From the NCBI RefSeq assembly GCF_019334805.1, contig NZ_CP079822.1:620001-684000 (forward strand): a DNA stretch of 64,000 nt, in the 5' to 3' direction. The notes beneath the pieces were generated by a model. The model was not told where the DNA came from, did no database searches, and saw only the letters and a program-made list of their open reading frames with translations. Position 1 is the first letter of the stretch. Every line of letters begins with the position of its first letter. Made by a program: the position numbers and the translations under genes. The DNA comes from Rothia mucilaginosa (GTDB taxonomy: Bacteria; Actinomycetota; Actinomycetes; Actinomycetales; Micrococcaceae). Shown piece after piece: positions 20,407 to 48,625 of the stretch.

Positions 20407-20520
20407 GGTCCCGCGCTTGCGTCACGCTTTTGCGTGCCGCCCGGTCTTCACCCAGGGCACCCCACCGCGGAGGAGGGTTGCCGGCCAGCTAGCTGGGGCT
20501 TGTCGCTGGCGCTCTTGACC
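20407..20520 (-). ncRNA. SAM-IV riboswitch
   Basis: The minus strand reads GGTCAAGAGCGCCAGC at the 5' end. It continues with AAGCCCCAGCTAGCTGG, CCGGCAACCCTCC and GCGGTGGGGTGCCC, and closes with GTGAAGACC, a GCACGC-AAAA-GCGTG hairpin and CAAGCGCGGGACC. This order and these conserved blocks match the actinobacterial SAM-IV aptamer I remember from mycobacterial sequences almost block for block, including the pseudoknot partners. It precedes metY-metX, the expected regulon. I did not identify the expression platform; it may block translation, since there is no clear terminator before metY. Confidence 0.93.
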
Positions 20521-21865: not shown

Positions 21866-22722
21866 ACGCTCAGACGCAACGCTCGGAAGAGTTCCAGCGG
21901 CAGGGTCGACGGTACGACCTGTGGCAGGAGTGCGCCCGCCAACTGCGACTCATGGGCTTTAGCCTGCGCCAGTTCCTGACGGTCCCCTACTTCATTCAGC
22001 TGCTCATCAGTACGGTACTCGGGTCGGTTATTATTCAGGCTCTTGCGGTGCATGCGGCGGCGCAGAGCTCCGCGGGTCACTCCGTTGACCCGACCCTCGC
22101 GTGGACCCGCGCGGGCATTGTGGGCATGTGGTCGGTCTGCATCGTGTCTGCGGGCATCATCAATTTTGAGCGTTTCCGCGGGACCCTCGTGTACCTGTGT
22201 TCGGGGTCGATTTCTCCGGTGCGGGTGCTGGCGGCTATCGTTTCGAGCGCCTCCATTGTGGGTTTGGCGGCTCTACCTCTGTCGTGGGCGTTTTGGGCTC
22301 TTGTGACGCTTAACCCGCAGGTCACCGACTTTTCTGCGCTCTGGCCGCGCTACATTCTGGGCGTTCCTCTGCTATGGCTTGCCTGCCTGTCGGTCACGTT
22401 CATGATTGCGGTGTTCTTCGTGGCGACGCCGAACGCTATCGCCTACGAGGAGCTGCTCCTCGTGCCGGTTTTTATTCTTTCCGGGGTTCTCTTCACGACC
22501 ATTGAAGCGCCCGCCTGGCTGGATGCCGCGGGCGTGCTCATTCCCCTGCAGGCGCCGGTTCACCTCCTACTTGGGCGTACCGCCATCACTACCCCGACGG
22601 ATGCACTCCTGCCCGTAATTCAGACCCTGGTCGTGAGCTTCATCTGGGCGTTGTGCGCGTTCCTCTTTGCTCGGAAGGCTCTCGCCTCCGCCCGTCGTCG
22701 CGGCACCCTGGGGGCGATGTAG
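21862..22722 (+). CDS. ABC-2 type permease, subunit 1
   Basis: This 286-residue protein has six predicted transmembrane helices after a short cytoplasmic N-terminus, the usual layout of ABC-2 permeases. Its ATG overlaps the ATPase stop codon (ATGA), indicating translational coupling. It and the next gene are similar in size and would form a heterodimeric channel with two copies of the ATPase. No substrate-specific motif is visible. Confidence 0.85.
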   Translation: MNAQTQRSEEFQRQGRRYDLWQECARQLRLMGFSLRQFLTVPYFIQLLISTVLGSVIIQALAVHAAAQSSAGHSVDPTLAWTRAGIVGMWSVCIVSAGIINFERFRGTLVYLCSGSISPVRVLAAIVSSASIVGLAALPLSWAFWALVTLNPQVTDFSALWPRYILGVPLLWLACLSVTFMIAVFFVATPNAIAYEELLLVPVFILSGVLFTTIEAPAWLDAAGVLIPLQAPVHLLLGRTAITTPTDALLPVIQTLVVSFIWALCAFLFARKALASARRRGTLGAM

Positions 22723-22723
22723 C

Positions 22724-23554
22724 GTGCGTATTCTCTCTTCTGCCGCTCTGCCTAGCGTGGCGCGTCGGGCTCTGTCGACCGCCTCTATTGGCTGGTCATC
22801 TTCTATTACCTTCGCAACCCTCGGAACGGCCATCACGACCCTGGTTCTCGTACCCGGTCTTAACGTGCTTTTCACGGTGCTTCTGGGCGCTGATCTTGCC
22901 GCGAACGATACAGTACGCATCGGCTGCGCGTCTGCTCTGATTGCCACCCTCAGCTCCGTGGCAGCCGGTATTGTCGCGCGCGTTGCCACCGACCGGTGGA
23001 TTGGCGTCTTCGAGTACGTGTGTACGGCTCGCCCGGTGGATGCTGGCTACTGGCTCGGTGCGGCGGCGGTACCCGCGTTGCTGGCATCCGTGACGGGTCT
23101 GAGCAATGTGGGCATCGTGTGGTTACTGTCCCTCACGGCACCCTCTACCGGGGCGGCTTCGGGGCTTCTGATTGGAGCCATTGCGCTGATGCCGGTTGCG
23201 GTTCTGGGCGGGGTCTGCCTGGGCATTTTTGCCGCCGGGCTCGGTCTGTACCTGTCGGATCCGTACACGGGGTCGAATTTTCTGTCGATTATTCTGCCAG
23301 TGAGCGCGGGCGTGATTGTGCCGGTGAGTACCTATCCGGCGTGGCTTGCCTGGGTATGTTCCTGGGTTCCCGGCTCCCGGCTGGTGCAGGCTTTAGATAC
23401 CTCTGGCAGTATTGCGAGCAGCACTACCCCGAATTTCTTCGCGCTCCTGGCGGCAGACACAGCCCTGGCAGTACTCTACGCCGCTATCGGGTTGGGGCTG
23501 ACGGTCCTTGCCGCCCGCCGCATCCGTGCCGGCGCCCGCGCCTCGCTGTTGTAA
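22724..23554 (+). CDS. ABC-2 type permease, subunit 2
   Basis: The 276-residue product carries about six transmembrane helices. I place the start at the GTG at 22724, one base after the stop of the preceding permease gene; the open frame begins 19 codons earlier inside that gene, which is less likely. It is the last gene of the exporter operon. A run of nine C residues follows near 23597, before rsgA, and no good terminator hairpin is seen. Confidence 0.83.
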   Translation: MRILSSAALPSVARRALSTASIGWSSSITFATLGTAITTLVLVPGLNVLFTVLLGADLAANDTVRIGCASALIATLSSVAAGIVARVATDRWIGVFEYVCTARPVDAGYWLGAAAVPALLASVTGLSNVGIVWLLSLTAPSTGAASGLLIGAIALMPVAVLGGVCLGIFAAGLGLYLSDPYTGSNFLSIILPVSAGVIVPVSTYPAWLAWVCSWVPGSRLVQALDTSGSIASSTTPNFFALLAADTALAVLYAAIGLGLTVLAARRIRAGARASLL

Positions 23555-32282: not shown

Positions 32283-32895
32283 AATGCTCCTTGGGGCCGT
32301 CCCCGCTCGTTCCGTCCCCGGAACTCTGGCGCGGCGCCGCTCACCCTTTGATAACGAAGTAGGTTACTCATTTTCTGGCTCTACCATGTGAGCGGCTCTC
32401 CACCGATTTCATGTCACCGTGAGCGATTCTGCGCTAGTGCGCGGAATCCGGTGGCACTTCCTCGGTGGGGACGTGCGGTAGAACCGGGCATCGTTTCAAG
32501 CATTCCAAGCTTGAAACCACATAAGCGATTCCCTGACGAGAATCTTTCTGGTCTCCAAGATAGCCGAGGTTGTGACGGTTTCCAACCCCGTTTTAGGTTC
32601 ACAGCGAACGTCCTGACTTCTCCCAGGGTTCTTTAAGGTAAAGAGTGCAGGAAACGTTAACCCCCCGATTGAATCCCGGGGTTTTCGACCCGTTTTCCCC
32701 GGTATTCCGGGGTTTTCTAGGGGGTTTAGCCGGATGCGCTCCCCCGCCCTCCGCCTCCTTTAACGGATGCCCGCACCACCCCAATAGGGGATTCGAACAG
32801 CGTGTAAAAAAATTTTAAATATTTCTACGCTCTCGGAGTGTTTTAAGCTCTCCAACCCCCAGAAACTGTGGTAATTACAAGTGCCAAATTTTGGT
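32283..32895. other. Long noncoding region upstream of the Rpf-like gene
   Basis: I see no gene over about 610 nt. It contains a perfect 9-bp hairpin (32493-32517), another near-perfect hairpin GATTCTGCGC/GCGCGGAATC (about 32425-32448), and GC-rich GGGGTTTTC repeats near 32690-32730. Some actinobacterial rpf genes carry a c-di-AMP (ydaO) riboswitch, but I could not find its conserved blocks here. A long structured leader for the Rpf-like gene, or a separate small RNA, remains possible. Confidence 0.4.
32493..32517. repeat. Perfect inverted repeat GTTTCAAGC-N7-GCTTGAAAC
   Basis: Nine-bp arms and a 7-nt spacer lie about 210 nt upstream of the Rpf-like gene. It could be a protein operator or an RNA hairpin in the leader. 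Confidence 0.55.
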
Positions 32896-41831: not shown

Positions 41832-41903
41832 GCTTCCCTTGTGCCCGCACCATTTGTGGCGCGGGCATTCCCAGGATTTTAGGTTTTCTAAGGAGGCGTG
41901 CCT

Positions 41904-42296
41904 TTGGCCGGCTACAACCCGCTGAGTTATTTCTCATTCGGTAAAAAGAAGGATAGTTCGGAGGCTACTGAGAGCGCCGAGCAGCTTGAGCGTAGCTCCG
42001 CACATTCTTCTGCGCACGCGGATACCGCATCCAGCGCCCCGCCGAAGGATTCTGCTCAGCCTTCGGTAGATACTGACGCTGAGCAGGAGCCTCTACTGAA
42101 GGTGGTTAAGGGCTCCCCCACTCCGGAGGAGATTGCCGCCCTCACCGCTGTGGTTGCGATGATGCAGGCGAGCGCCGCAAAGCAGGAGCAGAACTTGCTG
42201 GTGGGTGCCGCTTCACGCATCCTGAACCGCGGTCAGCGCCTGGGTGTTTCGTTGCGTCCCGGTCCCGGTTCGTGGAGGCGCGCTCGCCCCATGTAA
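41904..42296 (+). CDS. Acyl-CoA carboxylase epsilon subunit
   Basis: The epsilon subunit is a small actinobacterial protein that joins alpha and beta subunits into a stable carboxylase. The core motif LLKVVKGSPTPEEIAALTAV lies at about residues 68-87, followed by a Ser/Arg-rich tail ending WRRARPM. The N-terminal 60 residues are an acidic Ser/Ala/Glu-rich extension, longer than in most family members. The start is most likely the TTG at 41904, which is 7 nt after AGGAGG; the GTG at 41898 is only 1 nt from that site. A short GC hairpin lies between it and the beta gene. Confidence 0.88.
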   Translation: MAGYNPLSYFSFGKKKDSSEATESAEQLERSSAHSSAHADTASSAPPKDSAQPSVDTDAEQEPLLKVVKGSPTPEEIAALTAVVAMMQASAAKQEQNLLVGAASRILNRGQRLGVSLRPGPGSWRRARPM

Positions 42297-42365: not shown

Positions 42366-42516
42366 CCCCAAATTTAAGATTTATATTGCGCTATTGAACA
42401 TCTAATGCGCTGGTTCTTGCGATTTTGTCATATTAGAAACGATAAAGCGATGATGATACGCCCTGATGCTACGATGTATATACCATCACAATAGTGTTAG
42501 TAAATTGGCAGGGACC

Positions 42517-43683
42517 ATGGCAAAGATGCTGAATAAAAACCATAGGCCCCCACCGGATGTCTATATCACGCTTCTGTTGCCGACGCTACGGCGCTTGTCG
42601 AAGACTGTGCCCCGCACCGCCGCCTATGTTAGCGAGCAGTTGCGGCAACAGACTAAGGCATTGGGGTCGAAGAAGAACCTACCGGCTCTTGAATCCACCG
42701 ATTTTGCGGTGGCTGTGCGTACCACCTTGAAAATCTTGGTGGCACTTCGTTATGCCCAGTTGATGCCTCGTTTGACCCCGTGGGAGAAGAGGAAGTACCT
42801 GCTCACTCCCCTGGGCGCCGAGCTGACCTGCACCCCGCATCTGCACGGTTCGGTGCCGCCGCGTGTGGTGAAGCAGGTGCAGGCGTTGTGCTCTCAGAGT
42901 TTGACGGCAAAAAGCGTGAAGAAGCTGAAGAAGCAGGCGAACGCGCTACTGGAGAATGCGCAGGAGGAGCATCGCCTCATTTTTGGCGCTTCCAATAGCG
43001 ATAGCACCACCGAGTTGGAGGCTTTCTCGCCCTCCACTGACGCTGCGGACAAAGCGCCCGCCTACCCGGCAACCGGTGCGGAGCACCTTGCACATGCTTT
43101 GAATTCTGCGGAGGCTGCGGGGTCCTGGCCCGCCGGTCAGTCGCCTCTGGATATTATTTTGCGTGCCAGCGATTCGCCGGTGATTCACGCTCAGGCTGAG
43201 TTCGCGGAGCATTTTACGCAGGATTTGATTCAGCATATTCACGCGGTGACGCCAGAATATTTTGAGCAGATTGTTGCCGATATTTTTACGGCTCTTGGTT
43301 TTAACACCGAGGTAACCGGCGGTGCTGATGATAAGGGTGTTGACGTTATTGCCCGCTATTCTGATGGCCTGGATTTCGCGCCGATTTATATTCAGGTGAA
43401 GCATTATTGCGGAACTATGAAGGTCACCCCCAACGAGATTCAGAAGCTTGCCGGTGCAGTGCTTCTGCACGGCGGCCTGCAGGGTGTTTTGGTGACCTGC
43501 GGTGCTTTTGCGCATCCGGTTCCCGAGTATTTGCAGGGTTTGCCCGGCGCTCGCAATATTGCGCTGGTTGATCGACACCAGTTGGTGGAGCTGATGATTC
43601 GTCACCGTGTGGGTGTTCTTGATGGTGAGGGCGAGTGCGGTTACCGCATTGACGAGGAGTATTTTGCCCGCGGCTTGGAGTAG
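42517..43683 (+). CDS. Mrr-like endonuclease with N-terminal winged helix
   Basis: The 388-residue protein has a Mrr_N-type winged helix at about residues 15-105, ending with the typical YLLTPLG turn. A variable linker covers residues 150-225. An Mrr catalytic domain spans about 245-365: Glu250 in YFEQIV, the GADDKGVD block with Asp276, and Gln293-Val-Lys295 in IQVKHY. That is an intact D-QxK site of the PD-(D/E)xK superfamily. Mrr enzymes cut DNA carrying modified bases or respond to stress. No methyltransferase or other restriction gene is adjacent. The ATG at 42517 has AGGGA upstream. A paralogue lacking the Q and K follows at 44161 on the same strand. Confidence 0.88.
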   Translation: MAKMLNKNHRPPPDVYITLLLPTLRRLSKTVPRTAAYVSEQLRQQTKALGSKKNLPALESTDFAVAVRTTLKILVALRYAQLMPRLTPWEKRKYLLTPLGAELTCTPHLHGSVPPRVVKQVQALCSQSLTAKSVKKLKKQANALLENAQEEHRLIFGASNSDSTTELEAFSPSTDAADKAPAYPATGAEHLAHALNSAEAAGSWPAGQSPLDIILRASDSPVIHAQAEFAEHFTQDLIQHIHAVTPEYFEQIVADIFTALGFNTEVTGGADDKGVDVIARYSDGLDFAPIYIQVKHYCGTMKVTPNEIQKLAGAVLLHGGLQGVLVTCGAFAHPVPEYLQGLPGARNIALVDRHQLVELMIRHRVGVLDGEGECGYRIDEEYFARGLE

Positions 43684-44160
43684 CCGGGGTGTTTCTGGGG
43701 CGAGTTATTTCTCTCCGAATATCTCTGGCCTTCATGCATTTCCCACGTCATTTCACTTAATGTATTTTCACTTTTCCTTGAGGATATTTTTCACATATCG
43801 GCTGGTTTTAGAAATCTAGGTTATTTCTCGAACCAGCCGATACAATAATGAAGGTAATGCGTTATATATTCTTCGCATTATTTCACGAAGTGAATATACC
43901 CGTGACGGTCTAGACACTTCACCCCAATTTATAGCGTTCTTTTCTGAAGTGTTCGTCGTTGAAGACGGTGCGTAAGCGGGACGGGTTGAGAAAAAACTAC
44001 CTACCCTGCTTCTCTTCGCTTCTCTTCACTGCGGGATTTCAAAGTGCCGGCCCAAAAATAAAGATGGTGCCGCTCACTTTCGTGATTATTTTCCCGTTCG
44101 CATGACTGCACTTTATGAAGAACGCCTGCACGATAAATAACACTAGATAAGGAGCCCGGC
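43684..44160. other. AT-rich gap between the two Mrr-like genes
   Basis: No gene is seen. The stretch is clearly richer in A and T than the surroundings. It holds a long two-part hairpin (43796-43842) and a TTCAC-GAA-GTGAA dyad near 43884-43896. The promoter of the 823-residue gene must lie near its right end. The base composition suggests acquired DNA. Confidence 0.5.
43796..43842 (+). terminator. Two-part hairpin downstream of the Mrr-like gene
   Basis: TATCGGCTGGTT (43796-43807) is perfectly complementary to 43831-43842. Inside the loop AGAAAT (43810-43815) pairs with ATTTCT (43823-43828). It lies 113 nt past the stop without a U-tract, so it may be a terminator, a 3'-end stabiliser or a regulatory RNA structure. 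Confidence 0.5.
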
Positions 44161-46632
44161 GTGGCTTTTGTGAATAAAACAATGCTCCATATCGATCATT
44201 CCGAATTGCACTCTTTGCAGCAGGAAACCTCGTGGGAGGCTCTACCCGAGGAAGCACGCACTCTCAGCATTGCGGCGGCTTTCTCTCTGCTCCGCCATTT
44301 TGAGCGCGCGCAGGATCGTGGCGAGAAGGTTTTCTTCCCCGATATGTACACCCCGGTTGGCGTGGACCTGGGTTTCAACATGACTCAGCGTTTCATTGCG
44401 GTCGGTGACAATGTCCTCTTCCGTGAGGCACTCAATAAGCTGATTGCGGCGCTGGTCAATGCTGATTATCTTGAGGTGTCCCTCAGCCAGTTGCATCCGG
44501 GCAACCTGCACTACACCCTCAGCGAGGCTGGCCGTGAGCTTTTGGGTACCCCGAAGGAACAGCAGGCGCAGGCTCTTCTGCCGGTTCTGCCTCTGCAGAG
44601 CGGCGTGTACCTGCACTATCTGAAGCAGTTCTACCCGGTTCTGCTCTCGCACATTACGGTGCGTGAGCTTCTGCCCATTGTCCTGAGCGTTACCCCGTCC
44701 TACCCTGCGGCGGCGCCCGTGAAGATTCGCGAGCTGGTGCTGCGTGAGTGCGGTTTCGTGCAGGGTTGGTACGGTCTGTCGTATCTGGAGCAGCGCATCG
44801 TGGAGCCGGTGATTGCTCAGGCGTTGAGCCTGCTGACCCGTGAGGGCTACCTGCGCACCAAGACCATTCACGAGCACACGGATTCGCCGCTGACGCTGTA
44901 CTCGCTGTCCCCGTCTGCGAAGGAGCTGGTGGCACGCCACGAGGAGACTGGCGTGCCCGCAAGCGAGCTGAGCTCCGTGCTGGCGCTGGTTAAGGATGAG
45001 GGCACCTCGATTACCGCTGAGGATATTGCCGCAACCGATGCTCTGCTGACCCATATGGGCGTTCTTCTGCTCGATACTCTCAACGACCACGGCGCCGATG
45101 TGGAGCTGAGCCTTCCGAGCCTGGAGCAGGTCTTTGACCGCGACGAGCGCATCCAGCAGGCGACCTCGAACCCCTATTTTGTGCAGATTGACGCGCAGGA
45201 TTACCTCTACGATGTGCTGATCGCCCACCACTACCTGTCCGAGCGTGAGACCGTCTACTCGCTGGGTCCTGCGTTTGCACCGGCTTTGGCGCAGATGGTT
45301 GAGCCGAGCGTTCAGAAGCTGGTGGCTTCGGCTCTGCTGGATCCCGCGGCGGTGGACGCTCTGCCGTACCCGCATCAGCTGTTGCACCCGATTCTGAAGC
45401 TCGTGGAGGAGAACCCGCGTATCTCCTACTACGACATCTACGATGAGTTGAAGCTCGCCCTGGATATCCCGTACCTGCAGGGTGAGATTGCTCCGCACCG
45501 TTATAAGCTGACCCCGCGTCTGCGTAACCGCTATTCGGTGGCGATGCACGTGCTGAAGGGCGAGCGCTACCTGAATGCTCTGCGTGAGGGTACCGGTCGT
45601 ACTTCCCGCAAGAACCCGGAGCGTTACGAGCTGAGCGAGGCGGGTAAGGAGCTGCTCAAGCGTTTCCCGGAGGGTGCTCCGGAGGCGGTGACCGCCCGCA
45701 TGGCGCCGCTGCCGCCGCAGTCGCTCAAGCACAAGCTGCCTCAGGATATTGCGGCTGAGCTGCAGGCTCGTGAGGAGGCTCTTCAGGCTGCTAAGGAGGC
45801 GCGCGCGGCGGAGCGTCAGGCTCGCCTGGCGGCTCGTGAGGGTGCGCGTGAGCCGTTGGCTCCGGTGCCGGGTGCTTCTCCGGCGTTGTTGGCGCGTCCG
45901 GCTGGTTCGCCGGTGGCAACTACTACCCAGGCGGTTACTACCCAGGCGCCCGCTGAGGTTCCGGCGGCGGTTGCTCCGGCTACCACCCAGTCTACTGTGT
46001 CCGTTCCTACTGTTTCTGCACCCGCTGTTTCTACACCCGCCGCGGCTCCTGCCCAGCCGGTTGTTTCCGCTCCGGCTGTTTCGGCTGCTGAGTCCTCGAC
46101 CGCGCTGCAGGTGGCTGCCGCGCAGGTGCGTGAGGCTCTGAAGCGTTACCGTCAGGTCTTCCGCCGCGAGGCGCTGGCTCCGGCGCTGGCTCAGGTGTCT
46201 GAGGAGCGTTTCCGCAGCATTGGTTTCGATCTGTTCCTGATGCGCGGCTACACGGTGGAGGCTCTGGAGGCTCAGGGCGTAGATGGTGTGGCAACTCCCG
46301 CCACCGGTGAAAAAGAACGCGCATTCTACGTGCGTACTCTGCGCCCGGTAGCGAACGGTGTGCTGTCCGCGAGCGTTCAGCCGCAGGATATTACCGCGTT
46401 CTTCCTGGCGATTCACGCCCGCGGCGGTCAGCTCGGCACCTTCATCACGAACGCGGCGTTCAGCGATGAGGCGTACGACGAGTTCATCCGCTGCTCGACC
46501 AAGTACCCGAACATTCTGGTGGATTTGGTGTCCGGCGATGAGCTGCAGGACCGCCTCATTGCGCACCGCCTCGGCGTGGTCGAGAGCGCAAACGGTCTGC
46601 TGGAGCTGAACGGTGAATACTTCGCCGGCTAA
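44161..46632 (+). CDS. Large multi-winged-helix protein with degenerate Mrr-like C-terminal domain
   Basis: This 823-residue protein appears to contain about four winged-helix segments over residues 25-530, several ending in the same YxLSEAGKELL-type turn as Mrr_N domains. A Lys/Arg/Ala coiled stretch and a Val/Pro/Thr/Ala linker (about 570-650) follow. Residues 667-823 align with the nuclease domain of the neighbouring gene: FRSIGFDLFLMRGY, GVDGVA with Asp708, and a shared end of the type ELxxxLIxHRxGV. The QxK triplet is replaced at FYVRT, and the Glu before it is Arg, so catalysis is probably lost. The start is a GTG after AGGAG. I infer a DNA-binding partner of the Mrr-like enzyme, possibly in defence; this is not established. 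Confidence 0.75.
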   Translation: MAFVNKTMLHIDHSELHSLQQETSWEALPEEARTLSIAAAFSLLRHFERAQDRGEKVFFPDMYTPVGVDLGFNMTQRFIAVGDNVLFREALNKLIAALVNADYLEVSLSQLHPGNLHYTLSEAGRELLGTPKEQQAQALLPVLPLQSGVYLHYLKQFYPVLLSHITVRELLPIVLSVTPSYPAAAPVKIRELVLRECGFVQGWYGLSYLEQRIVEPVIAQALSLLTREGYLRTKTIHEHTDSPLTLYSLSPSAKELVARHEETGVPASELSSVLALVKDEGTSITAEDIAATDALLTHMGVLLLDTLNDHGADVELSLPSLEQVFDRDERIQQATSNPYFVQIDAQDYLYDVLIAHHYLSERETVYSLGPAFAPALAQMVEPSVQKLVASALLDPAAVDALPYPHQLLHPILKLVEENPRISYYDIYDELKLALDIPYLQGEIAPHRYKLTPRLRNRYSVAMHVLKGERYLNALREGTGRTSRKNPERYELSEAGKELLKRFPEGAPEAVTARMAPLPPQSLKHKLPQDIAAELQAREEALQAAKEARAAERQARLAAREGAREPLAPVPGASPALLARPAGSPVATTTQAVTTQAPAEVPAAVAPATTQSTVSVPTVSAPAVSTPAAAPAQPVVSAPAVSAAESSTALQVAAAQVREALKRYRQVFRREALAPALAQVSEERFRSIGFDLFLMRGYTVEALEAQGVDGVATPATGEKERAFYVRTLRPVANGVLSASVQPQDITAFFLAIHARGGQLGTFITNAAFSDEAYDEFIRCSTKYPNILVDLVSGDELQDRLIAHRLGVVESANGLLELNGEYFAG

Positions 46633-46750: not shown

Positions 46751-46864
46751 GGTGAGCCCTTTTCGTCGTGTTCGGTGCCGCTCAGCCCGTAATATTGCCG
46801 GTTTAAGCGAGCTAAATCACCGAAAATCGTGGTTGGAGGCACACCCCTGCGTTAGGATATGAAC

Positions 46865-48625
46865 ATGAGCACTTACCAGGAACTTCCCAGCATCTACCGA
46901 TTGAAGCGCTCGCTGACCGACGTCGATCAGATTGCTAACGAATACTTTGAAAAGGTCCTCGACCTGAACCCCGTCCATGCAACCGAGCTTGGTCGTAAGG
47001 GCGTAGAGACCCTGTACCCCGATTACTCGCCCGCCGGCGAGAAGGCTTTTGCGCGCCTTGCGAAGAAGACTTTGAAGAAGGTCGATAACGTCCTGCCTAT
47101 TGATGACGTTGACCTGGTCACCCTGGATGCTCTGCAGGAGCGTCTGAGCCTGTACCGCAAGCAGTACAAGGCTGGTTTTGGCGGCTGGCAGCTGAACAAT
47201 ATTGCGTCCGTCCCGCAGGAAGTGCGCTCGGTCTTCGACCTGATGAAGCGCAACACCCAGCAGGATTGGGAGCATATTGTTGGGCGTATGCACCGCGTCA
47301 CCGAGGCACTGGAGGGATACATCCAGACTCTTGAGGCGGCTCGTGAAGAGGGTAAGGTTGCCCCGCGCCGCCAGGTGGATATTGTCATTGAGCAGACCGC
47401 CGCGTACTACGCTCCCGGTGGTTTCTTTGATGATTTGGCGGCTGAGGTCGCCGAGGCTGTCCCCGCTCTGAAGGATGAGGCTGCCGCCGGTGCCGAGGCT
47501 GCGAAGGAAGGCTACCGCCGCCTCAACAGCTACCTGGTGGAGAAGCTGCAGCCGGTCGCTCCCTCCCGCGACGCTGTGGGCCGTAAGGCGTACAGCCTGC
47601 ACTCCCGTTCGTTCCTGGGCACCACCATTGACCTGGACGAGACCTACGCCTGGGGCGTGAAGGAACTGGAGAGCATTATCGCTCGTCAGCGTGAGGTTGC
47701 CGAGGAGATTGAGCCGGGCGCAAGCATTGAGCGCGCGAAGCAGCTGCTCGATGAGGATCCGGCGCGTCAGCTGCACGGCACCGATGAGCTGAAGGCATGG
47801 ATGCAGAAGCTCGCCGACGCCGCCGTGGAGAACCTGGCGGGTAGCCACTTTGAGATTGGCGGCCCCATGCGCCGTATCGAGTGTTGCATCGCGCCGACGA
47901 ATGAGGGCGGTATTTACTACACCGGCCCCTCCCCCGATTTCTCGCGTCCGGGCCGCATGTGGTGGTCGGTTCCCGAGGGTGAGGACACGTTCACTACCTG
48001 GCGTGAAACCTCCACCGTGTACCACGAGGGCGTTCCGGGCCACCACCTGCAGATTGCTATTGCTACGGCGCTGAAAGGCACCATGAACTCGTGGCGTACG
48101 AACATGCTGTGGGTTTCCGGTCACGGTGAAGGCTGGGCGCTGTACGCCGAGCGCCTCATGGAGGAACTGGGCTACCTGAAGGATCCGGGTGACCGCATGG
48201 GCATGCTGAACGCTCAGCGTATGCGCGCCGCCCGCGTGGTCTTCGATATTGGTGTTCACTGCGAGATGCCGATTCCGGATGAGTGGGCTGAGCAGTTGGG
48301 TGTTGAGCCGGGCACCATCTGGACTTCTGAGCTGGGTTATGAGTTCTTGAAGCTGAACCTGGACGAGTCCGAGGGTCACCTGCGTTTCGAGTTCCTGCGT
48401 TACCTGGGTTGGCCGGGTCAGGCGCCGAGCTACAAGATTGGCGAGCGCCTCTGGCTGGAGCTGCGCGATCAAGCTGTGCGCCGCGGCGATGACATGCGTG
48501 CATTCCACACGCGTGCGCTTCTGCTCGGTTCGGTGGGTCTGGATACTCTGCGCCGCGCTCTGACCGATGAGATGATGCTCCCTCTGGATACTGAGGATGA
48601 CGACGATGAGGACGATGACGAGTAG
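46865..48625 (+). CDS. DUF885-family putative metallopeptidase
   Basis: The 586-residue protein has the HEGVPGHHLQ motif, the zinc-binding signature expected in DUF885 proteins, and SGHGEGWALYAERLMEE further on with another likely ligand Glu. The family resembles M32/M2-like helical peptidases but few members are characterised. The C-terminus is a run of acidic residues. I place the start at the second ATG (46865), six nt after TAGGAT at 46853-46858, which suggests a leaderless transcript; the ATG at 46859 directly abuts that box. No neighbour suggests a substrate. Confidence 0.85.
   Translation: MSTYQELPSIYRLKRSLTDVDQIANEYFEKVLDLNPVHATELGRKGVETLYPDYSPAGEKAFARLAKKTLKKVDNVLPIDDVDLVTLDALQERLSLYRKQYKAGFGGWQLNNIASVPQEVRSVFDLMKRNTQQDWEHIVGRMHRVTEALEGYIQTLEAAREEGKVAPRRQVDIVIEQTAAYYAPGGFFDDLAAEVAEAVPALKDEAAAGAEAAKEGYRRLNSYLVEKLQPVAPSRDAVGRKAYSLHSRSFLGTTIDLDETYAWGVKELESIIARQREVAEEIEPGASIERAKQLLDEDPARQLHGTDELKAWMQKLADAAVENLAGSHFEIGGPMRRIECCIAPTNEGGIYYTGPSPDFSRPGRMWWSVPEGEDTFTTWRETSTVYHEGVPGHHLQIAIATALKGTMNSWRTNMLWVSGHGEGWALYAERLMEELGYLKDPGDRMGMLNAQRMRAARVVFDIGVHCEMPIPDEWAEQLGVEPGTIWTSELGYEFLKLNLDESEGHLRFEFLRYLGWPGQAPSYKIGERLWLELRDQAVRRGDDMRAFHTRALLLGSVGLDTLRRALTDEMMLPLDTEDDDDEDDDE

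What the first reader, a model, noticed from the sequence alone, without database searches (positions are those of the whole stretch)
42517..46632. Paired Mrr-like proteins: an intact nuclease and a large inactive, multi-winged-helix paralogue
Seen: the first product keeps a complete D-QxK site (Asp276, Gln293, Lys295) behind a Mrr_N-type winged helix. The second, 823 residues, ends in a homologous domain with the Asp kept but the Q and K positions replaced at FYVRT. It carries about four winged-helix segments and a flexible Pro/Ala/Thr linker. Both end with the same ELxxxLIxHRxGV pattern. They lie in the same direction, separated by an AT-rich gap. Known: Mrr enzymes restrict modified DNA. 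Inference: the second protein is a recognition or regulatory subunit, and the pair is a two-part defence or stress-nuclease system that I cannot match to a described one.
Basis: partly seen in the sequence, partly recalled or inferred. Interest (0 to 1): 0.78.

Follow-up and report, generated by a model that had tools for sequence, protein, structure and literature searches.

The report
Mrr nuclease with dead multi-winged-helix twin
Side by side in the oral bacterium Rothia mucilaginosa and some relatives sit a gene for a DNA-cutting enzyme of the Mrr type and a gene for a much larger relative whose cutting site is destroyed; in the genomes looked at they come together or not at all, which suggests one two-part system whose job is still untested.

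Summary
The core observation holds. Gene A (42517-43683, 388 aa) is an Mrr-type nuclease with an intact site (E250, D276, Q293, K295). Gene B (44161-46632, 823 aa) ends in the same fold with E, Q and K lost; the Asp is kept here but is Gln in the most distant copy. B resembles a complete dead Mrr (Mrr_N-like winged helix plus dead catalytic domain) preceded by about 390 residues predicted to hold further winged helices. In 35 Rothia genomes, 5 have both genes, adjacent at one site (accE-A-B-DUF885), and 30 have neither full-length gene. My searches found no full-length copy outside Rothia. Both are under purifying selection, the dead domain included, and their catalytic domains are probably sisters (94/89). 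Corrections: A's winged helix is not Mrr_N by sequence, and the shared C-terminal pattern is general for Mrr proteins. The fixed chromosomal site neither proves nor excludes phage defence. Most likely B is the DNA-reading and restraining partner of A in a heteromeric Mrr system; complex formation, cutting and function are untested. No described two-gene match turned up in the papers searched.

The parts
42517..43683 (+). gene A: Mrr-type nuclease, 388 aa (the frame opens at 42466; ATG at 42517 taken as start)
   Evidence: ORF; Mrr_cat E 3.4e-25
42553..42846 (+). A winged-helix domain (residues 13-110), PadR/MarR-like fold, not recognisable as Mrr_N
43177..43680 (+). A Mrr catalytic domain (residues 221-388); E250, D276, Q293, K295
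43684..44160 (.). A-B intergenic gap, 477 bp, 44% GC, with an inverted repeat 43796-43842 (20-nt arms, 90% complementary)
   Evidence: in the alignment the repeat is seen in G159 and G002 but not in G101 or G153
44161..46632 (+). gene B: 823-aa dead Mrr paralogue (GTG start)
   Evidence: Mrr_cat E 7.7e-14; hhalign with canonical Mrr from residue 398 to 823, probability 96.8
44200..44544 (+). B segment 1 (residues 14-128), predicted winged helix
   Evidence: secondary structure, pLDDT 57-93 by blocks; not covered by the listed structure matches, so barely tested
44593..44946 (+). B winged helix 2 (residues 145-262), with LVLRECGFVQGWYGL, 14 of 15 columns invariant in five copies
45016..45339 (+). 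B segment 3 (residues 286-393), helical, winged helix uncertain
   Evidence: pLDDT 37-76 by blocks; 29% identity to G153, lowest of the ordered segments
45352..45690 (+). B winged helix 4 (residues 398-510), relative of Mrr_N
45841..46086 (+). B Pro/Ala/Thr-rich disordered linker (residues 561-642)
   Evidence: pLDDT 25-35; length and sequence vary between copies
46111..46629 (+). B dead Mrr domain (residues 651-823); E to R685, D708 kept, Q to R725, K to L727
42320..42357 (+). strong terminator-like hairpin (17 pairs) after accE, upstream of A
41898..42296 (+). accE (acyl-CoA carboxylase epsilon), left flank of the insertion site
   Evidence: PF13822 E 1.9e-18
46859..48625 (+). DUF885 protein, right flank of the insertion site
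   Evidence: PF05960 E 2.4e-149

Best explanation
A and B are the two subunits of a heteromeric Mrr-type system. An ancestral Mrr gene was probably duplicated in tandem; A kept catalysis, B lost it and gained extra winged helices. B reads DNA with its winged helices and holds A through their homologous Mrr folds, keeping A silent until B meets its target (foreign or wrongly modified DNA, or damaged own DNA), whereupon A nicks or cuts. Shown here: domain make-up, dead site in B, intact site in A, joint presence and absence in 35 genomes, purifying selection on both including the dead domain, common descent of the catalytic domains (moderate support). Inferred: physical complex, B as reader and brake, cutting by A, and the biological target.
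For: Both genes in 5 of 35 Rothia genomes, neither full-length gene in the other 30; adjacent, same order, strand and site in 5 of 5. 20 of the 30 non-carriers were examined at the site: 18 have accE next to DUF885 with no gene between and 2 hold unrelated genes. On an accD tree of 25 genomes the carriers lie in a supported 7-genome clade (97/96) with two pair-less genomes, so the pair was gained or lost as a unit at least twice. dN/dS for pairs within the R. mucilaginosa group: A 0.11-0.23, B 0.09-0.19; the dead domain alone 0.06-0.23 in the pairs computed and 0.24 to G153. The dead domain is among the better conserved parts of B (53% to G153; winged helices 54, 45, 29, 53%; linker 22%), with IRCSTKYPNILVDLV 13 of 15 invariant. 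A and B catalytic domains group together, 94/89. Precedents, from passages read: EcoKMrr is switched by oligomeric state (PMC12707154, PMC11279042); R.BspD6I is a two-subunit enzyme (PMC6261011); Hachiman's HamB restrains nuclease HamA (PMC12278908).
Against: No complex was modelled and no contact shown. The genes are 477 bp apart, with a terminator-like hairpin at the end of A by pattern scan (8 such sites found in the region against 5.7 expected), so they need not be one operon. The linkage rests on only two independent gains or losses. The A-B sister grouping has a very long B stem and is not starred. In R.BspD6I a catalytically deficient large subunit leaves the small subunit inactive (PMC6261011, passage), so that precedent does not directly support activation by a dead partner. 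The same genome has a further single Mrr gene of ordinary type, so Mrr enzymes as such need no partner.
Confidence: 0.45

Rival explanations
1. B is a stand-alone DNA-binding regulator or nucleoid-type protein that reused a dead Mrr fold as a dimerisation domain, and A is an independent Mrr enzyme; they are neighbours only because of tandem duplication.
For: 477-bp AT-rich gap in front of B; winged helices match transcription regulators of the MarR/PadR kind, a very common fold.
Against: Joint presence or joint absence in 35 of 35 Rothia genomes; the dead Mrr domain is about as well conserved as the winged helices.
Confidence: 0.2
2. B is mainly an immunity protein or brake that prevents A from cutting the host chromosome, without a targeting role; the pair behaves like a toxin-antitoxin pair.
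For: No genome with A alone (0 of 35); Mrr of E. coli induces DNA damage responses when its oligomeric state changes (PMC12707154, passages).
Against: No genome of the 35 with B alone either; B is twice the size of A with several DNA-binding-type domains that a simple inhibitor would not need.
Confidence: 0.15
3. The pair is a DNA-repair or stress nuclease of this clade, not a defence system.
For: One chromosomal site in 5 of 5 carriers; B's dS close to that of its neighbour DUF885 (win-G159 0.22 and 0.20; win-G101 0.85 and 0.81); B not found in phage, plasmid or viral collections.
Against: Absent from 30 of 35 Rothia genomes, two of them inside the carrier clade, so not essential; both proteins change much faster than the neighbours (dN win-G101 0.17 and 0.15 against 0.01 accD and 0.08 DUF885).
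Confidence: 0.15

Closest known systems
EcoKMrr-type Mrr enzymes (Mrr_N + Mrr_cat; type IV restriction)
   Same: A and B both carry the Mrr_cat fold; A keeps D-QxK; B 398-823 aligns with a whole canonical Mrr; same C-terminal pattern.
   Different: Ordinary Mrr is one gene; A's winged helix is not Mrr_N by sequence; B is dead and has about 390 extra N-terminal residues.
MspJI / AspBHI (modification-dependent, Mrr-like nuclease domain)
   Different: MspJI-family enzymes carry an SRA-like N-terminal domain (PMC12707154, passage); A and B have winged helices instead.
Heterodimeric restriction enzyme R.BspD6I
   Different: There the large subunit is an active nickase, and a catalytically deficient one leaves the small subunit inactive; B has lost its site. 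No methyltransferase lies next to A/B (accD, accE, DUF885, GSP_synth).
Tandem Mrr pair of Actinomyces slackii (L091)
   Same: Two adjacent Mrr genes with degenerate sites: the upstream one has Asp to Glu, Gln to Arg and Lys to Val, with the helix Glu kept; the downstream one keeps QAK.
   Different: The downstream copy has also lost the Asp (Glu) and the helix Glu (Gly), so it may be inactive too; opposite order; both of ordinary length with Mrr_N; seen in 1 of 213 genomes of its family with this query; tree position unsure.
PADLOC candidates PDC-S02 and mREase_IV
   Same: A scores 1e-25 and 3e-23.
   Different: The match covers only the nuclease part (A from residue 219-221 on).

Membership tests
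Mrr type IV restriction enzyme (protein A) | Mrr_cat PD-(D/E)xK domain | tested here: met
Mrr type IV restriction enzyme (protein A) | D-QxK catalytic residues | tested here: met
   D276, Q293, K295 invariant in 5 of 5 copies
Mrr type IV restriction enzyme (protein A) | N-terminal Mrr_N (PF14338) domain | tested here: not met
   no Pfam hit for the segment at E up to 10; hhalign 0.9%. It is a winged helix by predicted fold only
Mrr type IV restriction enzyme (protein A) | cuts or restricts modified DNA | not testable with these tools
   needs biochemistry
Mrr type IV restriction enzyme (protein B) | Mrr_cat fold | tested here: met
Mrr type IV restriction enzyme (protein B) | D-QxK catalytic residues | tested here: not met
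   Q to R725, K to L727, helix E to R685; D708 is Gln in G153
Mrr type IV restriction enzyme (protein B) | Mrr_N domain | tested here: inconclusive
   profile match 94.7% for residues 396-512 but no Pfam hit
Heteromeric restriction enzyme (BspD6I-like) | two proteins with related nuclease domains encoded side by side | tested here: met
Heteromeric restriction enzyme (BspD6I-like) | large subunit catalytically active | tested here: not met
   B lacks E, Q and K
Heteromeric restriction enzyme (BspD6I-like) | cognate methyltransferase next to the pair | tested here: not met
   the two nearest genes on each side are accD, accE, DUF885 and GSP_synth
Heteromeric restriction enzyme (BspD6I-like) | physical complex of the subunits | not testable with these tools
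Mobile anti-phage defence module | patchy presence among close relatives | tested here: met
   5 of 35 Rothia genomes; two pair-less genomes inside the carrier clade
Mobile anti-phage defence module | varying genomic location or mobile/defence neighbours | tested here: not met
   one site in 5 of 5 carriers with housekeeping flanks; B has no hit in phages, plasmids or viral contigs

The most novel reading that the evidence does not exclude
A two-subunit Mrr system in which a catalytically dead, enlarged Mrr paralogue with several winged helices targets and gates an active Mrr nuclease, so that DNA reading and cutting are split between duplicated copies of one enzyme. Degeneration in tandem Mrr genes may also have happened separately in Actinomyces slackii, though there both copies have lost site residues.
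Probability: 0.42. Interest if true: 0.7.

Novelty: new variant of a known kind. Interest (0 to 1): 0.47.

Why it matters
Mrr of E. coli is thought to be switched by its oligomeric state (PMC12707154, passages). A natural pair in which one copy has lost catalysis while its nuclease fold stays under selection would separate reading, restraint and cutting into two genes and make each testable. It could be a barrier to DNA uptake in a common oral commensal clade (inference). Named records call B simply 'restriction endonuclease', which hides that it is dead.

Tried and rejected
Rejected: A has an Mrr_N domain. Rejected as pair-specific: the shared C-terminal pattern, general in Mrr proteins. Rejected: B always keeps the Asp; it is Gln in G153 and in 2 of the 234 proteins matched by pattern. 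Remnants of the pair in the two pair-less genomes of the carrier clade: none convincing (best exact runs 13-14 bases, E 0.05-0.06). NCBIfam gave one weak hit for A far below its cut-off and none for B; PHROGs matched only the nuclease part of A.

Other tandem Mrr genes: in 248 genomes of the order, 74 have Mrr_cat; in the listed rows same-strand pairs within 3 kb occur in G000, G002 and G315; G255 has two 5 kb apart on opposite strands. In 394 genomes of the class, 159 have a match and the row list was cut off; among the rows shown G795 has two copies about 2.5 kb apart, both with D and QCK intact and hydrophobic N-termini by eye, and G631 two copies 10 kb apart. G315 is Actinomyces slackii by a 100% match to a named protein.

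Modification conflict: a C5 methyltransferase (PF00145) is in 2 of 5 carriers (G000, G101) and 12 of 30 others; an N6/N4 methyltransferase (PF01555) is in 33 of 35, all five carriers included. No sign of exclusion; any modification dependence must spare the common mark if that enzyme is active.

Full report
WHAT IS THERE. The window lies at 620001-684000 of a 2.28-Mb single-contig genome; its B protein is 98% identical to proteins named Rothia mucilaginosa. Two same-strand genes lie between accE and a DUF885 gene: A (42517-43683) and B (44161-46632). Both contain Mrr_cat, E 3.4e-25 and 7.7e-14. The in-genome search finds three Mrr_cat genes: A, B and a third at 2.20 Mb, an ordinary Mrr with Mrr_N and Mrr_cat.

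DISTRIBUTION. Of 35 Rothia genomes 5 have full-length A and B (G000, G159, G002, G101, G153) and 30 have neither; the other hits in the genus are to the catalytic region alone. In 5 of 5 the order is accD-accE-A-B-DUF885. Of 20 non-carriers examined at this site (10 were not: four gave no DUF885 hit and six were not fetched), 18 have accE next to DUF885 with no gene between, one (G173) holds an ORF with a lipoprotein-like start and one (G164) holds a lactonase-like gene, a small peptide gene and ABC-transporter-type genes (names by my reading of the sequences). Outside Rothia no full-length B was found in 396 genomes of the order, in a pattern scan of the genome-contig collection, or in viral contigs, phages and plasmids. 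Full-length A was seen only in three Rothia carriers among the 149 family genomes. The protein searches with B are swamped by Rothia copies and list only the best 120, so distant relatives may have been missed.

HISTORY. On the accD tree of 25 genomes the carriers sit in a supported clade of seven (97/96) with G149 and G173, which lack the pair: one gain and two losses, or two gains. B's dS is close to that of DUF885 between carriers, A's is somewhat higher. In the tree of catalytic domains A and B are each one clade with G153 outermost, so both copies predate the split of G153 from the rest; inside the rest B follows the accD tree in placing G101 next but A does not clearly. A and B group together (94/89, 96% of bootstrap trees), consistent with tandem duplication, but B's stem is very long and the group is not starred.

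SELECTION. dN/dS within the R. mucilaginosa group is 0.11-0.23 for A and 0.09-0.19 for B, against 0.02-0.03 for accD and 0.04-0.10 for DUF885. By domain, A's catalytic part is 0.05-0.08 and B's dead domain 0.06-0.23; the linkers are looser. The dead domain is kept, as expected of a binding surface, but under somewhat weaker constraint than the live one.

MECHANISM. A likely cuts DNA. B likely binds DNA and A. EcoKMrr is proposed to change from inactive tetramer to active dimer (PMC12707154 and PMC11279042, passages read), so a dead copy that enters the oligomer would be a natural regulator. R.BspD6I shows the work shared between two subunits, but there a catalytically deficient large subunit leaves the small one inactive (PMC6261011, passages), which counts against simple activation by a dead partner. 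Hachiman shows a partner restraining a nuclease until it senses damage (PMC12278908, passages). Winged helices read N6-methyladenine in several restriction enzymes (PMC11037411, abstract and outline). All steps after the domain anatomy are inference.

NOVELTY. Single-gene Mrr enzymes are well known. A stable pair with a dead, enlarged paralogue is not described in the papers that I searched. One other tandem with degenerate members was seen, in Actinomyces slackii, 1 of 213 genomes of its family, with both copies altered at the site. I rate the Rothia pair a new variant of a known kind.

Noticed in passing
L048:8173-9168 (genome G000:C1 about 2.20 Mb): Third Mrr gene of the same genome, canonical Mrr_N + Mrr_cat with GVD...QAK; the A search lists no such gene in the other four carriers, so it looks accessory while the A/B pair is shared.
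   Followed up: partly
L091:5134-7399: Actinomyces slackii tandem of two Mrr genes; upstream copy has Asp to Glu, Gln to Arg and Lys to Val; downstream copy keeps QAK but has Glu for the Asp and Gly for the helix Glu.
   Followed up: partly
L075:3644-7769 (G164) and L072:719-1657 (G173): The accE-DUF885 junction holds other cargo in two relatives: lactonase-like, small secreted peptide and ABC-type genes (recalling, from memory, a lactococcin-972-like bacteriocin locus), and a lipoprotein-like ORF.
   Followed up: partly
window 43796-43842: Inverted repeat with 20-nt arms between A and B, seen in three close genomes but not in G101 or G153; possible operator or terminator.
   Followed up: partly
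window 32283-32495 and 20408-20520, - strand: lysM-Actino RNA element and SAM-IV riboswitch.
   Followed up: no
Rothia genomes, e.g. G000:C1:1815378-1816097: An N6/N4 DNA methyltransferase is found in 33 of 35 Rothia genomes, including 32 of 32 that are at least 90% complete and at most 5% contaminated; perhaps a core methyltransferase of the genus.
   Followed up: no
window 22001-23000: Strong AT skew (-0.417) in one kilobase.
   Followed up: no
G149:C1:1068339-1070080: The DUF885 gene beside the empty site is split into two frames in G149.
   Followed up: no
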